Positions 12,342 to 19,085 of a DNA stretch of 64,000 nt are shown here, piece after piece. The first letter of the stretch is position 1, and the number at the start of each line of letters is the position of its first letter. This DNA is from Pseudomonas serboccidentalis. GTDB taxonomy: Bacteria; Pseudomonadota; Gammaproteobacteria; Pseudomonadales; Pseudomonadaceae. The notes beneath the pieces were generated by a model. It was not told the origin of the DNA and did no database searches. It saw only the letters and a list, made by a program, of their open reading frames with translations. Both the position numbers and the translations under genes were made by a program. The stretch spans positions 3,417,229 to 3,481,228 of the forward strand of contig NZ_CP101655.1 in assembly GCF_028830055.1 (NCBI RefSeq), written 5' to 3'.

Positions 12342-14393
12342 ATGTCCGAACCACGCAAGATCCTCGTCACCAGCGCCCTGCCCTACGCCAACGGTTCGAT
12401 CCACCTTGGCCATATGCTGGAATACATCCAGACCGATATGTGGGTGCGCTTCCAGAAGCATCGCGGCAACCAGTGCATCTATGTCTGCGCCGACGACGCC
12501 CACGGTTCGGCGATCATGCTGCGCGCGGAAAAGGAAGGCATCACCCCGGAACAACTGATCGCCAACGTGCAGGCTGAACACAGCGCCGACTTTGCCGAGT
12601 TCCTGGTCGACTTCGACAATTTCCACTCCACTCACGCCGAAGAAAACCGTGAGCTGTCGAGCCAGATCTACCTGAAGCTGCGTGACGCCGGGCACATCGC
12701 CCAACGCTCGATCACCCAGTATTTCGACCCGGAAAAGAAAATGTTCCTGGCCGATCGCTTCATCAAGGGCACCTGCCCGAAATGCGGCACTGAAGACCAG
12801 TACGGCGACAACTGCGAAAAATGCGGTGCGACCTACGCCCCGACCGATCTGAAAGACCCGAAGTCGGCCATTTCCGGCGCCACCCCGGTGCTCAAGGATT
12901 CCCAGCACTTCTTCTTCAAGCTGCCAGACTTCCAGCAAATGCTGCAAACCTGGACCCGCAGCGGCACCCTGCAGGACGCCGTGGCCAACAAGATCGCCGA
13001 ATGGCTGGACGCCGGCCTGCAACAGTGGGACATCTCCCGCGATGCGCCGTACTTTGGTTTCGAAATCCCGGACGAGCCGGGCAAGTACTTCTACGTGTGG
13101 CTGGATGCGCCGATCGGCTACATGGCCAGCTTCAAGAACCTCTGTAACCGCACGCCGGAGCTGGACTTCGACGCGTTCTGGGGCAAGGACTCCACCGCCG
13201 AGCTGTACCACTTCATCGGCAAGGACATCGTCAACTTCCACGCGCTGTTCTGGCCAGCCATGCTCGAAGGCGCCGGTTTCCGCAAGCCGACTGGCATCAA
13301 CGTGCACGGCTACCTGACCGTCAACGGCCAGAAGATGTCCAAGTCCCGCGGCACCTTCATCAAGGCCCGTACCTACCTGGATCACCTGTCACCGGAATAC
13401 CTGCGCTACTACTACGCGGCCAAACTGGGCCGTGGCGTCGATGACCTTGATCTGAACCTCGAAGACTTCGTGCAGAAGGTCAACTCCGACCTGGTCGGCA
13501 AAGTGGTCAATATCGCCAGCCGTTGCGCCGGTTTCATCCACAAGGGCAACGGCGGCCTGCTGGTCGACAACAATGCCGCGCCAGAGCTGACCGAAGCGTT
13601 CCTGGCTGCCGCGCCAGGCATTGCCGACGCCTATGAGGCCCGCGACTTCGCCCGTGCCATGCGTGAAACCATGGCCCTGGCCGACCGCGCCAACGCCTGG
13701 ATCGCCGACAAGGCCCCATGGTCGCTGAACAAGCAGGAAGGCAAGCAGGATGAAGTCCAGGCGATCTGCGCCACCGGCATCAACCTGTTCCGCCAGTTGG
13801 TGATCTTCCTCAAACCGGTGCTGCCGTTGCTGGCCGCCGATGCCGAGGCGTTCCTCAATGTCGCCCCGCTGACCTGGAACGACCACACCACCCTGCTGGC
13901 CAACCATCAGTTGAACGAATTCAAACCGTTGATGACCCGCATCGACCCGGTAAAAGTACAAGCCATGACCGACGCCTCGAAGGAAGACCTGACCGCCAGC
14001 CAGACCGACACCGGTGCCGCCGCACCGGCGGGCAACGGCGAACTGGCCAAGGATCCGCTGTCGCCGGAAATCGACTTCGACACGTTCGCCGCTGTCGACC
14101 TGCGCGTCGCCCTGATCGTCAAGGCTGAACACGTGGAAGGCGCCGACAAGCTGCTGCGCCTGACCCTGGACATCGGTGACGAGCAACGCAACGTGTTCTC
14201 CGGGATCAAGAGCGCGTACCCGGACCCGTCGAAACTTGACGGTCGCCTGACCATGATGATCGCCAACCTCAAGCCACGGAAAATGAAGTTCGGCATCTCC
14301 GAAGGCATGGTGATGGCGGCAGGTCCCGGCGGTGAAGAAATCTACCTGCTGAGCCCGGACAGCGGCGCCAAGCCGGGTCAACGCATCAAGTAA
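12342..14393 (+). CDS. metG: methionyl-tRNA synthetase
   Basis: The 683-residue class I aminoacyl-tRNA synthetase that charges tRNA-Met. It has the HIGH-type motif HLGH (near residue 21), a zinc-binding knuckle [17 protein letters not shown] (about 145-161), the KMSKS motif (KMSKSRG, about 331-337), and an appended C-terminal tRNA-binding (Trbp111-like) dimerisation domain (about 580-683). The start at 12342 ([18 protein letters not shown]) is the family start. A terminator follows the gene. Confidence 0.98.
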
Positions 14394-14525: not shown

Positions 14526-15095
14526 ATGACCGAACTTGCGCTTACGCTGATCAGTGCCGCCCTGCTCAACAACTTCGTGTTGCACTGGCCGCTGGGCGTC
14601 GATCCGTTGCTGGCCGGCAGTCGGCGCCAAGTGCATGCGTTGGGGCTGGCCACGTCATGCCTGATGCTGAGCGTCGGCGTCATCGGTTACGTGATCTGGC
14701 ACTGGCTGCTGGTGCCGCCGCAACTGCAGGCCCTGCACCTGTTTGTGTTCTTGCCGCTCAGCGTGCTACTGATCGCGCCAATGCTGAAACGGCTGGCGCG
14801 TGCGCTGCCCGACTGGCCGTTCGACGGACTGTGGCCGCTGTTGCTGGGCAATGCCGGGGTGCTGGGGCTGGCCTTGATCAATGCGCACAATGATCGAGGC
14901 TTGCTGCAGGCAACGGCGCTGAGCCTTGGCGCCGGCCTGGGTTTCTGGCTGGTGCTGAGCCTGTTCAGCGACTTGCGTGAGCGCACGGCCGACAACGACA
15001 TTCCCCTGCCCTTTCGCGGCCTGCCGATCGATCTGATCGGCGCCGGACTGATCGCAGTGATTTTTCTCGGATTCAGTGGACTGATCAAAACATGA
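14526..15095 (+). CDS. rsxA: RsxA/RnfA-like membrane subunit lacking the conserved cysteines
   Basis: A 189-residue protein with about six transmembrane helices, homologous along its whole length to RsxA/RnfA of the Rnf electron-transport complex (compare LNNFVL near the start and [10 protein letters not shown] at the end). Canonical RsxA has Cys in LGLCPFMG and in TTNCAVLG. Structural work on Rnf places a membrane [2Fe-2S] cluster between the cysteines of RnfA and RnfE. Here the equivalents are LGVDPLLA and LLGNAGVLG, so both cysteines are replaced, and the Glu of the VQFTEMVV segment is also gone. It starts the rsxA-B-D-G-E-nth operon and overlaps rsxB by ATGA. Confidence 0.85.
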
Positions 15096-16300
15096 GTCTG
15101 ATTCAACTCATCGATGCCCTCCTGCCGCAGACCCAGTGCGGCAAATGCGGCCACCCTGGCTGCAAGCCCTATGCGCAAGGCATCGTCGATGGCGAACCGA
15201 TCAACAAGTGCCCGCCCGGCGGCGACGAAACCATCGCTGCCCTGGCTGAACTGCTGAAAGTACCGGTGCTGGAGCTGGACGTCAGCCGTGGTTCGGCACC
15301 GCCACAAGTGGCGTACATCCGCGAAGCGGAGTGCATCGGCTGCACCAAGTGCATTCAGGCCTGCCCGATCGACGCCATTGTCGGCGCCGCGAAACTGATG
15401 CACACCGTGCTGATCGACGAATGCACCGGTTGCGACCTGTGCGTGGCGCCGTGCCCGGTGGATTGCATCGAGATGCATCCGCTGCCACTCGGCACCTTGC
15501 CGGTGGTGGGCGGTCTGGCGGCCAGCCTTGAAGAGCAGCGCGCGCGCACCGCCAAACGTGATCATGCGCGCCAGCGTTTTGAACGACGCAACGCCCGCCT
15601 GCAACGCGAAGAGCAACAGAAACAGGCTGAGCGCGAGGCGCGGGCGCAACGTGCAGCGCAACCCGCAGTGGCAACCCTCGATCCAGTGCAGGCCGCCCTG
15701 GAACGCGTGCGCGCGCAGAAAGCCGCGACCGCCGACGCTGCGCTGAAAAAGGCCAAGATCGATGTCGCCATGAGCCGCGCGCAATTGCACAAATCGCTGA
15801 AAGCCTTCGGCCATCCACCGACGTTCGAGCAGCAGTCGCAACTGATTGTGTTGCAACAGCAGTTCGAAGCCGCCGAGCAGGCGCTGGCGATACTCGAAAG
15901 CAGCGTCCCTGCCGCCCCTGCAGCTCCGGCCCCGGCGAAAGACGCGGACCTGAAACGGGCGAAAATCCAGTTGGCCATGCGCCGTGCCGAGCTGAAAAAG
16001 GCCCAGACCGCCGAGGCACCGCCGGAGCAGATCGCCACGCTGGAACAGGCCCTGCGTGACGCCCAGCAAGCCCTTCACGCTGCCGAAGCCGCCAGCGAGC
16101 AACCGGCGCCTGACCTCGTGCGCGTGGAAAAACGTCCGATCGACAGCCAGCTTCGCCAATTGAAAACCGAACTGGCTTACGCGCGCGCCAACCTGAGCAA
16201 ACTCCAACGCCGCGCCGACACGCCGAGCGACGCCCTCGACAAGGCCCGCGCCCGCCTGCAGGACGCCGAGCGTCAGGTACACGATCATGTCGCCCCGTGA
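15092..16300 (+). CDS. rsxB: RsxB/RnfB-like ferredoxin subunit with long coiled-coil tail, no membrane anchor
   Basis: A 402-residue iron-sulfur protein. Residues 5-45 carry a four-cysteine Fe-S motif (C16, C19, C24, C40). Residues 81-91 and 111-121 are two [4Fe-4S] ferredoxin motifs ([12 protein letters not shown] and [12 protein letters not shown]). Classical RsxB (about 190 residues) starts with a transmembrane anchor of some 25 residues. This protein starts directly before the first cluster and has none. From about 145 on it is a charged, Ala/Gln/Lys-rich extension with three related repeats of about 55 residues (roughly 215-270, 284-335, 351-399), each containing an LKxAKIxxAMxRAxL-like motif. 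RsxC, normally next in the operon, is absent. It overlaps rsxA by 4 bases and rsxD by 14. Confidence 0.85.
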
Positions 16301-17270
16301 AGCACCGGATGATCGCCTGCAACAGGCGATGAAACAGGTGCTGCTCGCCACGCTGCCGGGGCTGCTGGGGTTGTTCTGGCTGTACGGCTGGGGCGTGTTG
16401 ATCAATCTGGCTCTGGCGGTGACCACCGCGTTAGTGGTCGAGGCTGGCGTCACCCGGCTGCGCCGACAGCCACTGCAACCGACGCTGAGCGACGGCAGCG
16501 CACTGGTCAGCGCCACCCTGCTGGCGGTTGCCCTGCCGCCTTATTGCCCGTGGTGGCTGACCGTGACGGCAATAGCTACGGGCCTGCTGTTCGGCAAGCA
16601 CCTCTACGGCGGCATCGGCAAGAACCCATTCAATCCGGCCATGCTCGGCTTCGCGCTGGCGATGGTGCTGTTTCCGCAGCCGATGACCCACTGGCCGGCA
16701 CACGGGATGAATTTGCTGGCAGCGTTTGAACACGTCTTCAATATGGGCCAGGCGCCGGACGCCTGGGCTCAGGCTACCGCGCTGGACAGCCTGCGCATCA
16801 ACAAAAGCCTGACCATGGATGAGCTGTTCGCCGCCAACCCGGCGTTCGGGCGTTTCGGCGGGCGCGGTGTGGAGTGGGTCAATCTGGCGTTTCTCGCCGG
16901 CGGGCTGTTGTTGTTGCAACGCCGGGTGATTGGCTGGCAAGCACCGGTCGGCATGCTGGTCAGTCTGTTTGTTGTCAGTCTGCTCTGCTGGAACGGTTCG
17001 GGCTCCGATTCCCAAGGCTCGCCGCTGTTTCATTTGCTGAGCGGGGCGACCATGCTCGGCGCGTTTTTCATCATCACTGAACCGGTGTCCGGGGCAAAAA
17101 GTCCGTTGGCCCGCCTGCTGTTCGGCATCGGTGTCGGGTTGCTGACCTACCTGATTCGCACTTGGGGCGGCTACCCGGATGGCGTTGCATTTGCCGTGCT
17201 GCTGATGAATCTCTGCGTGCCGGCGCTGGAACGCATTGCTGCTGGCCGCCAGACGCAGGTGACCCCATGA
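16287..17270 (+). CDS. rsxD: RsxD/RnfD-like flavin-carrying membrane subunit
   Basis: A 327-residue integral membrane protein with around eight to ten helices, similar to RsxD/RnfD. It keeps the [10 protein letters not shown] segment (about residue 251-260) whose Thr carries covalent FMN in the family, and [20 protein letters not shown] (about 109-128), typical of NqrB/RnfD proteins. It is slightly shorter than E. coli RsxD (about 350). The ATG overlaps the end of rsxB by 14 bases, and the stop overlaps the rsxG start by ATGA, so translation is probably coupled. Confidence 0.88.
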
Positions 17271-17872
17271 ACCGCACGGCCTCGGTCATCGCGCTGGTGC
17301 TGATCGCCGGTGCCGGTCTCGGCCTGACTTATGTGGTGCAACGCAGCAGTGCACCGCAGATTGCCATCGAACAACGCCTGCTCGACAGTCGCAAACTGCT
17401 GGATGTACTCGCGGCCGACAGCTACGACAATCAGCCGCTGGAGCAGCCGCTGGCGTTGGCGGACACTCAATTGAGCCACAGCACGTTGCTGGCCGGTTAC
17501 CGCGCAAGCAACGCCGGGCAACCGGTGGCGGTGTTGTTGCGCACGCAGACCGAGGGTTATGCCGGCGCCATCGAATTGCTGATCGCCATTGATGCCAACG
17601 GCAGACTGCTGGGCGTTAAAACCCTGCGGCAAAACGAAACACCAGCGCTCGGCGGGCTCATCGGCGACTGGCCGAACACCTGGCTGGCAGGGTTTTCCGG
17701 GAAATCGCGCAGTGCCCCCGATGACGCAGGCTGGGCATTGAAAAAGGATCAGGGACAGTTCGATCAACTGGCTGGAGCGACCATCACGTCCCGCGCCACC
17801 GTGAATGCCATCCATGACGCCCTGCGCTACTTTGATGAGCACCGGGCAACCTTGCTGGGGATCGAACCATGA
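17267..17872 (+). CDS. rsxG: RsxG/RnfG-like FMN-binding periplasmic subunit
   Basis: A 201-residue protein with one N-terminal transmembrane helix (about 5-22) and a periplasmic FMN-binding domain. The motif GATITSR near residue 172 contains the Thr that takes covalent FMN in RnfG and NqrC. The usual Ser before Gly is Ala here (LAGATIT). GYAGAIELLIAIDANGRLLGVKTLRQNETPALGG is a family hallmark. It overlaps rsxD and rsxE by 4 bases each. Confidence 0.88.
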   Translation: MNRTASVIALVLIAGAGLGLTYVVQRSSAPQIAIEQRLLDSRKLLDVLAADSYDNQPLEQPLALADTQLSHSTLLAGYRASNAGQPVAVLLRTQTEGYAGAIELLIAIDANGRLLGVKTLRQNETPALGGLIGDWPNTWLAGFSGKSRSAPDDAGWALKKDQGQFDQLAGATITSRATVNAIHDALRYFDEHRATLLGIEP

Positions 17873-18450
17873 ACCGGCCAACGAATCTGACCAATGCTTT
17901 GCTGCTGGCGCTGTTGCTCGGCACCAGCGCCACACTCGCCGGCGCGCTGGGCATGCTGTTGATGTCGAGCGTGGTCGTGACGGTTTACGCGGTGTGCATG
18001 GGGCCACTGCGTTCACGACTGTCCGACAGCAGCGGGTTGCTGGCCAGCATGCTGCTGGCCGCCACCCTGACCAGTTGCGCCAATATCCTCGCGCAGCGCT
18101 GGGCGCTGCAGTGGCACCAGGCACTTGGAATCTATGCCGGGCTGATCGCCTTGCAATGCGTGGTGCTGGAATACAATGGGTTCTTTCGTCAGGCGCTAAC
18201 CGAACGCCTGAAGTTTTTTGGCCTGTCGAGCGGGCTGCTACTGACGCTCGCTGTTCTGCGTGAGCTGTTCGGTCAGGGCTATCTCGGTCATGGTCTTTCA
18301 GCGCACTGGCAAGGTCTGGCTCTGTTCAACCAAGGGTTGCACCTGATCACCCTGGTTCCCGGCGCCTTCATATTGTTGGGGCTGCTGCTGGCTGCCCGCC
18401 AGGCATGGACTCGCTCGAACGCTCTCTCCAAGGAAACACATCACCCATGA
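17869..18450 (+). CDS. rsxE: RsxE/RnfE-like membrane subunit, shortened and divergent
   Basis: A 193-residue membrane protein with about six helices in the position of rsxE. The family is recognisable in LGIYAGLIALQCVVLE (compare LGIFIPLIVTNCIVVG in E. coli), VLRELFGQG and LVPGAFILLGLLLA. It is about 40 residues shorter than E. coli RsxE. The first conserved Cys (in LLGLCPLLAV) falls in LLGTSATLAG and is missing, while the second (LQCVV) is kept. The next gene, nth, starts inside its stop codon. Confidence 0.8.
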   Translation: MNRPTNLTNALLLALLLGTSATLAGALGMLLMSSVVVTVYAVCMGPLRSRLSDSSGLLASMLLAATLTSCANILAQRWALQWHQALGIYAGLIALQCVVLEYNGFFRQALTERLKFFGLSSGLLLTLAVLRELFGQGYLGHGLSAHWQGLALFNQGLHLITLVPGAFILLGLLLAARQAWTRSNALSKETHHP

Positions 18451-19085
18451 ATGCCGCAAAACGCCTTGAGATTTTTCGCAGGCTGCACGAAGACAATCCC
18501 GAGCCGAAAACCGAACTGGCCTACTCCTCGCCCTTCGAGCTGCTGATTGCGGTGATTCTATCGGCTCAGTCGACGGATGTTGGCGTCAACAAGGCCACGG
18601 CCAAACTGTTCCCGGTGGCCAATACCCCGGCAGCGATCCACGCCCTTGGCGTCGAAGGGCTGTCTGAGTACATCAAGACCATCGGCCTCTACAACAGCAA
18701 AGCCAAGAACGTGATCGAGACCTGCCGCATGCTGGTCGAACTGCACAACGGTGAGGTCCCGCAAACCCGTGAAGAACTGGAAGCCCTGCCCGGCGTGGGC
18801 CGCAAGACCGCCAACGTGGTGCTCAATACCGCTTTTCGGCAATTGACCATGGCGGTCGACACGCACATTTTCCGCGTCAGCAATCGCACCGGCATCGCTC
18901 CGGGTAAAAATGTGGTTGAGGTGGAAAAGAAACTGATGAAGTTTGTACCCAAAGACTACCTGCTGGACTCTCATCACTGGTTGATTCTGCACGGTCGCTA
19001 CGTATGTCTTGCTCGCAAGCCGCGCTGTGGCAGCTGCCGGATCGAAGATTTGTGCGAGTACAAACACAAAACCTCGGACGATTGA
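18447..19085 (+). CDS. nth: endonuclease III
   Basis: A 212-residue DNA glycosylase/AP-lyase for oxidised pyrimidines. The helix-hairpin-helix LPGVGRKTANVV contains catalytic Lys120, and Asp138 lies in VDTH. The [4Fe-4S] ligands C187, C194, C197 and C203 have exactly the spacing of the E. coli enzyme. The ATG at 18447 overlaps the rsxE stop by four bases. The rsx-nth arrangement is shared with E. coli and P. aeruginosa. Confidence 0.97.
   Translation: MNAAKRLEIFRRLHEDNPEPKTELAYSSPFELLIAVILSAQSTDVGVNKATAKLFPVANTPAAIHALGVEGLSEYIKTIGLYNSKAKNVIETCRMLVELHNGEVPQTREELEALPGVGRKTANVVLNTAFRQLTMAVDTHIFRVSNRTGIAPGKNVVEVEKKLMKFVPKDYLLDSHHWLILHGRYVCLARKPRCGSCRIEDLCEYKHKTSDD

What the first reader, a model, noticed from the sequence alone, without database searches (positions are those of the whole stretch)
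14526..18450. Reduced Rsx/Rnf complex with no RsxC and missing intramembrane cysteines
The operon reads rsxA-B-D-G-E-nth with overlapping genes and no space for rsxC, the NADH/FMN subunit. RsxA lacks both conserved cysteines (LGVDP and GNAGV instead of LGLCP and TNCAV), and RsxE lacks one (LLGTSAT) and is about 40 residues short. These cysteines are understood to hold the membrane [2Fe-2S] cluster of Rnf. RsxD and RsxG keep their FMN-attachment motifs, and RsxB keeps all its Fe-S ligands. All frames are open and tightly coupled, so this is not simple decay. It looks like a rewired complex with a different electron route, perhaps ferredoxin-type entry through RsxB alone.
Basis: partly seen in the sequence, partly recalled or inferred. 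Interest (0 to 1): 0.75.

Follow-up and report, generated by a model that had tools for sequence, protein, structure and literature searches.

The report
Pseudomonas Rnf core reduced to flavins
In many Pseudomonas species a well-known membrane electron pump has lost its NADH subunit and the iron-sulfur cluster in its membrane centre but kept its flavin-binding subunits, so these genes, still labelled as the standard pump, probably make a different kind of electron-transfer machine.

Summary
The operon is metG-rsxA-B-D-G-E-nth. The complete 6.0-Mb genome holds no RnfC and no second Rnf/Nqr cluster. In a 398-genome genus sample, 219 genomes have rnfD but no rnfC over the cut-offs. Among 117 C-less rows, three of the four ligand cysteines are gone in all; RsxE Cys97 stays in 113. 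The flavin Thr of RsxD stays in 117 of 117, that of RsxG as Thr/Ser in 117 of 117. The 33-34 canonical rows keep all four cysteines. RsxB is a fusion: an RnfB Fe-S head without its membrane anchor joined to the C-terminal tail of RnfC, which shows how rsxC vanished. RsxB and A-D-G-E occur independently of each other (odds ratio 1.01; no phylogenetic correction), so entry of electrons through RsxB is not supported. Best reading: a flavin-only A-D-G-E membrane core moving electrons between the cytosolic/membrane side and a periplasmic acceptor, beside a separable soluble RsxB. The architecture is well supported; the electron route is inference. Raised dN/dS of A and E and frequent loss keep a relaxed remnant as main rival.

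The parts
12342..14393 (+). metG, conserved left flank of the rnf site
   Evidence: metG in 73 of the 77 loci of the metG-nth site (in the other four not matched in the fetched stretch)
14526..15095 (+). rsxA (189 aa), Rnf-Nqr membrane subunit without either [2Fe-2S] cysteine
   Evidence: (109 bits against TIGR01943 cut-off 229)
14601..14603 (+). RsxA Asp26 in place of ligand Cys 1
   Evidence: Cys in 33 of 33 canonical rows; Asp in 93 of 117 C-less rows, Cys in 0
14853..14855 (+). RsxA Ala110 in place of ligand Cys 2
   Evidence: Cys 33 of 33 canonical; Ala in 100 of 117 C-less rows, Cys in 0
15092..16300 (+). rsxB (402 aa): RnfB Fe-S head without N-terminal anchor, fused to the RnfC C-terminal tail
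15497..16297 (+). RsxB tail (about aa 136-402) homologous to the post-ferredoxin tail of canonical Pseudomonas RnfC
   Evidence: 47% identity over 251 aa to RnfC of L085, E 7e-47 without masking (54% over 116 aa, E 2e-22 with masking)
16287..17270 (+). rsxD (327 aa), best-conserved membrane subunit; lacks the N- and C-terminal tails of canonical RnfD
   Evidence: (360 bits, cut-off 207)
16776..16778 (+). RsxD Thr164, position of the covalent FMN (xxAT motif)
   Evidence: Thr in 117 of 117 C-less and 35 of 35 canonical rows
17267..17872 (+). rsxG (201 aa), FMN_bind subunit with a hydrophobic N-terminus
17780..17782 (+). RsxG Thr172, flavinylation site (AGAT)
   Evidence: Thr 112 + Ser 5 of 117 C-less rows
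17869..18450 (+). rsxE (193 aa), shortened Rnf-Nqr membrane subunit
   Evidence: (66 bits against TIGR01948 cut-off 213)
17908..17910 (+). RsxE Ala14 in place of ligand Cys 1
   Evidence: Cys 34 of 34 canonical, 0 of 117 C-less
18157..18159 (+). RsxE Cys97, the only ligand cysteine retained
   Evidence: Cys in 113 of 117 C-less rows and 34 of 34 canonical
18447..19085 (+). nth (endonuclease III), conserved right flank
   Evidence: nth in 77 of 77 loci of this site

Best explanation
Shown: within Pseudomonas an Rnf operon lost rnfC. What remains of it, the long C-terminal tail, is fused to an anchorless RnfB head. RsxA and RsxE lost three of the four ligands of the membrane [2Fe-2S] cluster, while RsxD and RsxG kept their covalent-FMN sites. 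The lasting unit is A-D-G-E; RsxB is a separable Fe-S protein without a membrane anchor, so probably soluble. Inferred: A-D-G-E is a flavin-only membrane complex. RsxD passes electrons between a cytosolic or membrane donor (quinol, or a soluble flavin/NAD(P)H reductase that takes the place of RnfC) and its periplasmic-side FMN; RsxG, moving on a cluster-free A/E scaffold, carries them to or from a periplasmic acceptor. The U-turn of normal Rnf (in through RnfB and the A/E cluster, back through RnfD and RnfC) is thus replaced by one leg, probably without redox-driven ion pumping through A/E.
For: RnfC absent from a complete genome. 219 of 398 genus genomes have rnfD and no rnfC over the cut-offs (read off the tables by hand). 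Coupling of C loss and Cys loss in named loci: 55 of 55 C-less loci lack the three cysteines; in 25 canonical-type loci A (23 read) and E (24 read) have them all. Flavin sites invariant; two ApbE matches in the genome. Residues fixed in C-less rows but absent from the canonical Pseudomonas rows: RsxA W141 (116 of 117), D149, P167; RsxD E265, R316; RsxG S175 (117); P167 is not unique, as A. woodii and C. tetanomorphum RnfA also have Pro there. Fusion: RnfC-tail homology of RsxB, anchor missing. Independence of B: 192/34/106/19, odds ratio 1.01; repeated change of B presence. A/E fold kept in models of moderate confidence. RsxD dN/dS 0.26, as in canonical loci (0.28). Electron path of normal Rnf/Nqr: review PMC12174285 (passages and one section). 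A one-leg precedent: two-subunit NQR/RNF-like systems (PMC8238504, PMC11334425, passages).
Against: No biochemistry. The donor and the periplasmic acceptor are unknown; RnfD lacks the extra N-terminal helices that form the NqrB quinone site (PMC12174285), so quinol as donor is a guess. A and E evolve much faster than in canonical loci (median dN/dS 0.42 and 0.55 against 0.13 and 0.20) and G somewhat faster (0.35 against 0.26); 12 of 926 E pairs are at or above 1, so relaxation is not excluded. 125 of 398 genomes have no RnfD over the cut-off, so the set is dispensable. Two of 62 loci show a split gene (L136 rsxA, L144 rsxD). The retained RsxE Cys97 is not explained. Independence of B was not corrected for phylogeny.
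Confidence: 0.5

Rival explanations
1. One reading: electrons still enter through RsxB and cross to RsxG by a new route around the missing cluster.
For: RsxB keeps all 13 conserved cysteine columns in 63 of 63 RnfB rows (10 canonical, 48 A-B-D-G-E, 5 orphan); its Fe-S head is strongly constrained (median dN/dS 0.12, like metG); it lies inside the operon, often with a 4-base overlap.
Against: Anchor lost; A-D-G-E persists without B in 34 genomes (14 of these loci inspected) and B without D in 106; odds ratio 1.01; three of four cluster ligands gone from A/E.
Confidence: 0.15
2. A relaxed remnant: after losing rnfC the complex no longer moves electrons and is slowly lost; residual constraint reflects membrane-protein folding or a minor structural role.
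For: Raised dN/dS in A and E, slightly in G; repeated loss of B and of the whole set; split genes in 2 of 62 loci.
Against: 60 of 62 loci show no split gene although median dS between them is about 1; FMN-site Thr/Ser invariant in 117 rows, RsxE Cys97 in 113, further residues fixed; RsxD as constrained as in canonical loci.
Confidence: 0.27
3. The A/E pair has become a cation- or proton-binding site (Asp26, Asp149, Cys97) and the complex couples flavin redox to ion movement without a cluster.
For: Asp replaces ligand Cys 1 in 93 of 117 rows, and Asp149 is present in 116 of 117 but in no canonical row.
Against: In 20 of 117 rows the segment around position 26 aligns with a gap, so Asp26 is not universal; no structure of the assembly here.
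Confidence: 0.06
4. A distant rsxC, a second rnf/nqr cluster or an assembly artefact explains the missing gene.
For: 7 of the 226 genomes with the C-less type of RnfD do have an RnfC over the cut-off; in the three looked at (G022 L095, G057 L102, G093 L103) it lies away from the C-less operon.
Confidence: 0.02

Closest known systems
RNF / Rsx complex (RnfABCDGE)
   Same: Homologous A, B, D, G, E in the same order; covalent-FMN sites of D and G; metG..nth site shared with canonical Pseudomonas loci
   Different: No RnfC; incomplete [2Fe-2S] ligand set in A/E; RnfB anchorless, fused to the RnfC tail, and dispensable
Na+-NQR (NqrABCDEF)
   Same: Shares the D/E (RnfE/A), B (RnfD) and C (RnfG) core; RsxA and RsxE models match NqrE/NqrD
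   Different: NQR also uses the cluster; only two PF02508 proteins in the genome, both here; rnf, not nqr, models score best
Two-subunit NQR/RNF-like systems, mainly of Actinobacteria and CPR (PMC8238504, PMC11334425)
   Same: One-leg flavin route proposed from the cytosolic side to an extracytosolic flavin
   Different: There the RnfD-like protein carries a PF00175 NAD domain and lacks the FMN Thr, and only two subunits are described; RsxD here has only PF03116, keeps its FMN Thr, and A/E are present
Orphan RsxB next to nth
   Same: Five Pseudomonas orphans read are the same anchorless, tailed protein at the same site (L097-L101)
   Different: Here it sits inside an operon with A-D-G-E

Membership tests
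RNF complex (RnfABCDGE) | RnfC (NADH/FMN and 2x[4Fe-4S] subunit) present | tested here: not met
   only the RnfC tail survives, fused to RsxB
RNF complex (RnfABCDGE) | Four membrane cysteines (two in A, two in E) for the [2Fe-2S] cluster | tested here: not met
   one of four kept; named loci
RNF complex (RnfABCDGE) | RnfB with N-terminal membrane anchor and Fe-S head | tested here: not met
   (hydropathy): cysteines in 48 of 48 A-B-D-G-E loci, anchor in 0 of 48 (10 of 10 in canonical)
RNF complex (RnfABCDGE) | Covalent-FMN sites in RnfD and RnfG | tested here: met
   D Thr 117 of 117; G Thr/Ser 117 of 117; ApbE present
RNF complex (RnfABCDGE) | RnfA/RnfE six-helix fold | tested here: met
   sequence profiles; models of moderate confidence, pLDDT 80 and 76; RsxE best Foldseek E 3e-3
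RNF complex (RnfABCDGE) | Ferredoxin:NAD+ oxidoreductase activity and ion pumping | not testable with these tools
   needs biochemistry
Rsx SoxR-reducing system (E. coli type) | RsxABCDGE with NAD(P)H-dependent SoxR re-reduction | not testable with these tools
   RsxC absent; activity not testable; SoxR and RseC not searched
NQR/RNF-like two-subunit system | RnfD-like protein with C-terminal PF00175 NAD domain | tested here: not met
   RsxD has PF03116 only
Na+-NQR | NqrA-F set | tested here: not met
   no further PF02508 pair in the genome; best subfamily models are rnf

The most novel reading that the evidence does not exclude
A genus-wide, four-subunit, flavin-only descendant of Rnf (RsxA-D-G-E) that works without RnfB, RnfC or any Fe-S cluster as a one-way electron conduit between the inner-membrane/cytosolic side and the periplasm, with a cluster-free A/E pair serving as the docking and gating scaffold of RsxG.
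Probability: 0.4. Interest if true: 0.85.

Novelty: new variant of a known kind. Interest (0 to 1): 0.68.

Why it matters
Genes named after the ferredoxin:NAD+ pump in many species of a model genus probably do not encode that pump. The case separates what the A/E cluster does (ion coupling, the input leg) from what the D/G flavins do, supplies a natural minimal core for structural work, and shows a clear gene-fusion route by which Rnf lost its NADH subunit. Metabolic models and SoxR arguments that assume a full RsxABCDGE in these pseudomonads would need revision.

Tried and rejected
Distant rsxC or second cluster: searched with three families, rejected for this genome. Shifted cysteines: rejected. 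I first took the SGAT motif of RsxD at aa 252-255 for the FMN site (and a notebook entry); alignment to solved RnfD chains put the site at Thr164, and the counts given here are. A first dN/dS run used over-long ORFs for RsxG and took the RnfC ORF for canonical B; it is replaced. RnfC loss as a class-wide habit: in a 274-genome class sample 171 have rnfD over cut-off. Of these I gave 80, mostly those with the lowest RnfD scores, to the rnfC search; 74 of 80 had RnfC over cut-off. Of the six without, I fetched five and read them: in G618 the RnfD gene lies at a contig end; G490 and G611 have all four cysteines; in G532 only A (both cysteines) and B were recognised; in G505 (L231) only an RnfC-like ORF and a weak B match were recognised; the B ORFs of G490, G611 and G532 have 21-23 Cys. 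G614 was not read. So in what I read the cysteine-less, C-less form was seen only in this genus. A regulatory motif upstream of rsxA in 114 C-less and 20 canonical stretches: ANR, SoxR and OxyR patterns none; a loose sigma54 pattern in 5 of 114 and GATAAT in 72 of 114 and 15 of 20 mean little. An HMM-coverage test of gene intactness was useless because the profiles contained over-long ORFs; I rely instead. Origin of anchorless RsxB by transfer from other families: the head tree has only 123 columns and is poorly resolved, and the tails of nine such proteins from other families do not match canonical Pseudomonas RnfC tails (E above 0.01). Literature: the listings (25 of 59 papers shown; 2 of 2; 15 of 17; 20 of 65; 25 of 53; 17 of 17) showed no title or abstract describing an Rnf without RnfC or without the A/E cysteines in Pseudomonas. 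Beyond listings I saw passages of PMC12174285, PMC4014512, PMC8238504, PMC11334425 and PMC8042378 and one section of PMC12174285.
Full report
What is there. The window (G000 C1:3417229-3481228 of a complete 5,997,322-bp genome) holds metG, rsxA, rsxB, rsxD, rsxG, rsxE and nth in tight order. Pfam and NCBIfam confirm the families. RsxD, RsxG and RsxB pass the rnf subfamily cut-offs; RsxA and RsxE fall far below theirs (109 against 229 bits; 66 against 213). The closest named relative found by RsxD is Pseudomonas parakoreensis (92%), so the host is probably a fluorescens-group Pseudomonas; that is inference, as the genome itself is unnamed.

RnfC is absent. PF01512 finds only NuoF, RnfC_N only a pyruvate carboxylase B / oxaloacetate decarboxylase alpha type protein, TIGR01945 nothing over cut-off in this genome, and PF02508 only RsxA and RsxE.

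It is widespread in the genus. In the same 398 genomes, rnfC passes its cut-off in 54, rnfD in 273 and rnfB in 345. Reading the tables by hand: 47 genomes have the high-scoring canonical RnfD (at least 411.9 bits), and exactly these have the high-scoring RnfC (at least 609.5 bits). The other 226 have the lower-scoring RnfD type; 7 of these also have an RnfC over cut-off, and 219 have none. B passes the cut-off in 192 of the 226; B is present without D in 106 genomes; 19 have neither. I fetched 80 stretches and, with the window, classified 62 C-less loci (48 A-B-D-G-E, 14 A-D-G-E), 10 canonical, 5 orphan-B and 4 second clusters. nth flanks 77 of 77 loci of this site and metG 73 of 77. Two of the 62 C-less loci show a split gene (L136 rsxA, L144 rsxD). 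Eighty named loci from the species-level collection give the same picture: 55 C-less (among them P. protegens, P. chlororaphis, P. brassicacearum, P. corrugata, P. cichorii and P. alkylphenolica) and 25 of the canonical type (P. indica, P. guguanensis, P. peli, Stutzerimonas and others). C was recognised in 23 of the 25; in the other two (L219, L222) the contig starts inside the operon, and I class them by their RsxE cysteines.

Cysteines and flavins. With canonical rows pooled (33-35 per gene) and 117 C-less rows (112-113 distinct sequences), RsxA has neither ligand cysteine in any C-less row (at site 1 Asp in 93, a gap in 20 and N, G or A in 4; at site 2 Ala in 100), RsxE lacks the first in all, and RsxE keeps the second in 113. 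Canonical rows keep them in 33 of 33 (A) and 34 of 34 (E). The RsxD flavin Thr (placed by alignment to solved RnfD chains) is Thr in 117 of 117; the RsxG site is Thr in 112 and Ser in 5. The genome has two ApbE matches. C-less proteins have fixed residues absent from canonical Pseudomonas ones: RsxA W141, D149, P167; RsxD E265, R316; RsxG S175. Of these P167 is also found in RnfA of A. woodii and C. tetanomorphum. AlphaFold2 models of RsxA (pLDDT 79.8) and RsxE (76.4) resemble RnfA/NqrE (TM 0.62-0.69) and RnfE/NqrD (TM 0.50-0.58; no match under E 0.001). The fold is kept, with moderate confidence.

How rsxC went. RsxB is 402 aa where canonical RnfB is about 191. All its conserved cysteines remain (13 columns, 63 of 63 RnfB rows), but the N-terminal hydrophobic anchor present in 10 of 10 canonical RnfB is absent in 48 of 48 A-B-D-G-E loci and 5 of 5 orphans. 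Its tail matches the C-terminal tail of canonical Pseudomonas RnfC: 47% identity over 251 aa, reaching RnfC residue 958 of 961 (E 7e-47 in a 20-sequence set; 54% over 116 aa, E 2e-22, with low-complexity masking), and no canonical RnfB at E below 1. With masking, 36 of 45 tails (five of them orphans) and 8 of 8 further ones match at E below 0.001; the 9 without a match are 83-150 aa long. In L074 the match begins 4 residues into the tail and at RnfC residue 617, 20 residues after the last ferredoxin Cys (597) of the L092 RnfC (without masking, 92). The simplest reading is an excision that fused the RnfB head to the RnfC tail and removed every cofactor domain of RnfC. The review PMC12174285 notes that the long C-terminal helix of A. 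vinelandii RnfC contacts RnfB (passage).

RsxB and A-D-G-E are separate modules. The 2x2 table 192/34/106/19 gives an odds ratio of 1.01 (Fisher p = 1; not corrected for phylogeny). In the RsxD tree the C-less rows lie on one side of a branch (support 92) and the canonical rows on one side of another (93), both below the star level; presence or absence of B changes at least three times by starred branches and six times on the tree as drawn. None of the 14 inspected loci of B-less genomes has an RnfB-matching ORF at the site; where the ORF starts are not over-extended, A and D lie -4 to 96 bases apart.

Selection. With a Nei-Gojobori script on ORFs trimmed to the window's gene starts, median dN/dS in A-B-D-G-E pairs is A 0.42, B 0.21 (head 0.12), D 0.26, G 0.35, E 0.55, against metG 0.12 and nth 0.05. 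Canonical pairs give A 0.13, B 0.15, D 0.28, G 0.26, E 0.20 (930 and 22 pairs at most). Pairs are not independent, median dS is near 1, and 12 of 926 E pairs reach 1. So A and E, and a little G, are less constrained than in true Rnf, yet mostly well below 1 and with fixed functional residues: purifying selection, but a partly relaxed system remains possible.

Mechanism. In Rnf and Nqr the electron runs from the cytosolic Fe-S domain (RnfB/NqrF) to the A/E [2Fe-2S] cluster, then RnfG FMN, RnfD FMN, RnfD riboflavin and out through RnfC or quinone (PMC12174285, passages and section 16). Here the input leg has lost most of its cluster ligands and its anchor, and the output subunit is gone; only the RsxG-RsxD flavin leg looks intact. 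The most economical function is a one-leg flavin relay between the cytosolic/membrane side and the periplasm, as proposed for the two-subunit NQR/RNF-like systems (PMC8238504, PMC11334425, passages). Donor, acceptor and direction are inference. The eLife survey defined RNF by the presence of RnfB, so the B-less form would not have been counted there.

Not found in print: the listings showed no description of this form. Outside the genus, 74 of 80 lower-scoring rnfD genomes of the class have RnfC over the cut-off, and the three of the exceptions whose RnfA I could read keep its cysteines.

Noticed in passing
L227, L228, L229 (G490, G611, G532, same class): Other Rnf loci without a full RnfC: an RnfB ORF of 310-323 aa with 21-23 Cys, apparently RnfB fused to the RnfC ferredoxin part, beside RnfA (and RnfE in the first two) that keeps its cysteines.
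   Followed up: partly
L097-L101 and 106 of 398 genus genomes: Orphan RsxB: the five loci read are metG-rsxB-nth with no other rnf gene at the site, the same anchorless, RnfC-tailed protein.
   Followed up: partly
L235, L237, L242, L247, L248, L251, L252, L254, L256: Anchorless RsxB with tails of 65-101 aa in other families of the class; the tails do not match Pseudomonas RnfC, so anchor loss may have happened several times.
   Followed up: partly
L095 (G022), L096 (G288), L102 (G057), L103 (G093): Second, different Rnf-type clusters in a few Pseudomonas genomes, with RnfC scores of about 378-567 bits.
   Followed up: no
L136 (G245) and L144 (G262): C-less loci with a split rsxA and a split rsxD respectively: signs that the set can decay.
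   Followed up: no
window 18157-18159 (RsxE Cys97): A single ligand cysteine stays nearly invariant (113 of 117) although its three partners are gone; its role is unexplained.
   Followed up: no
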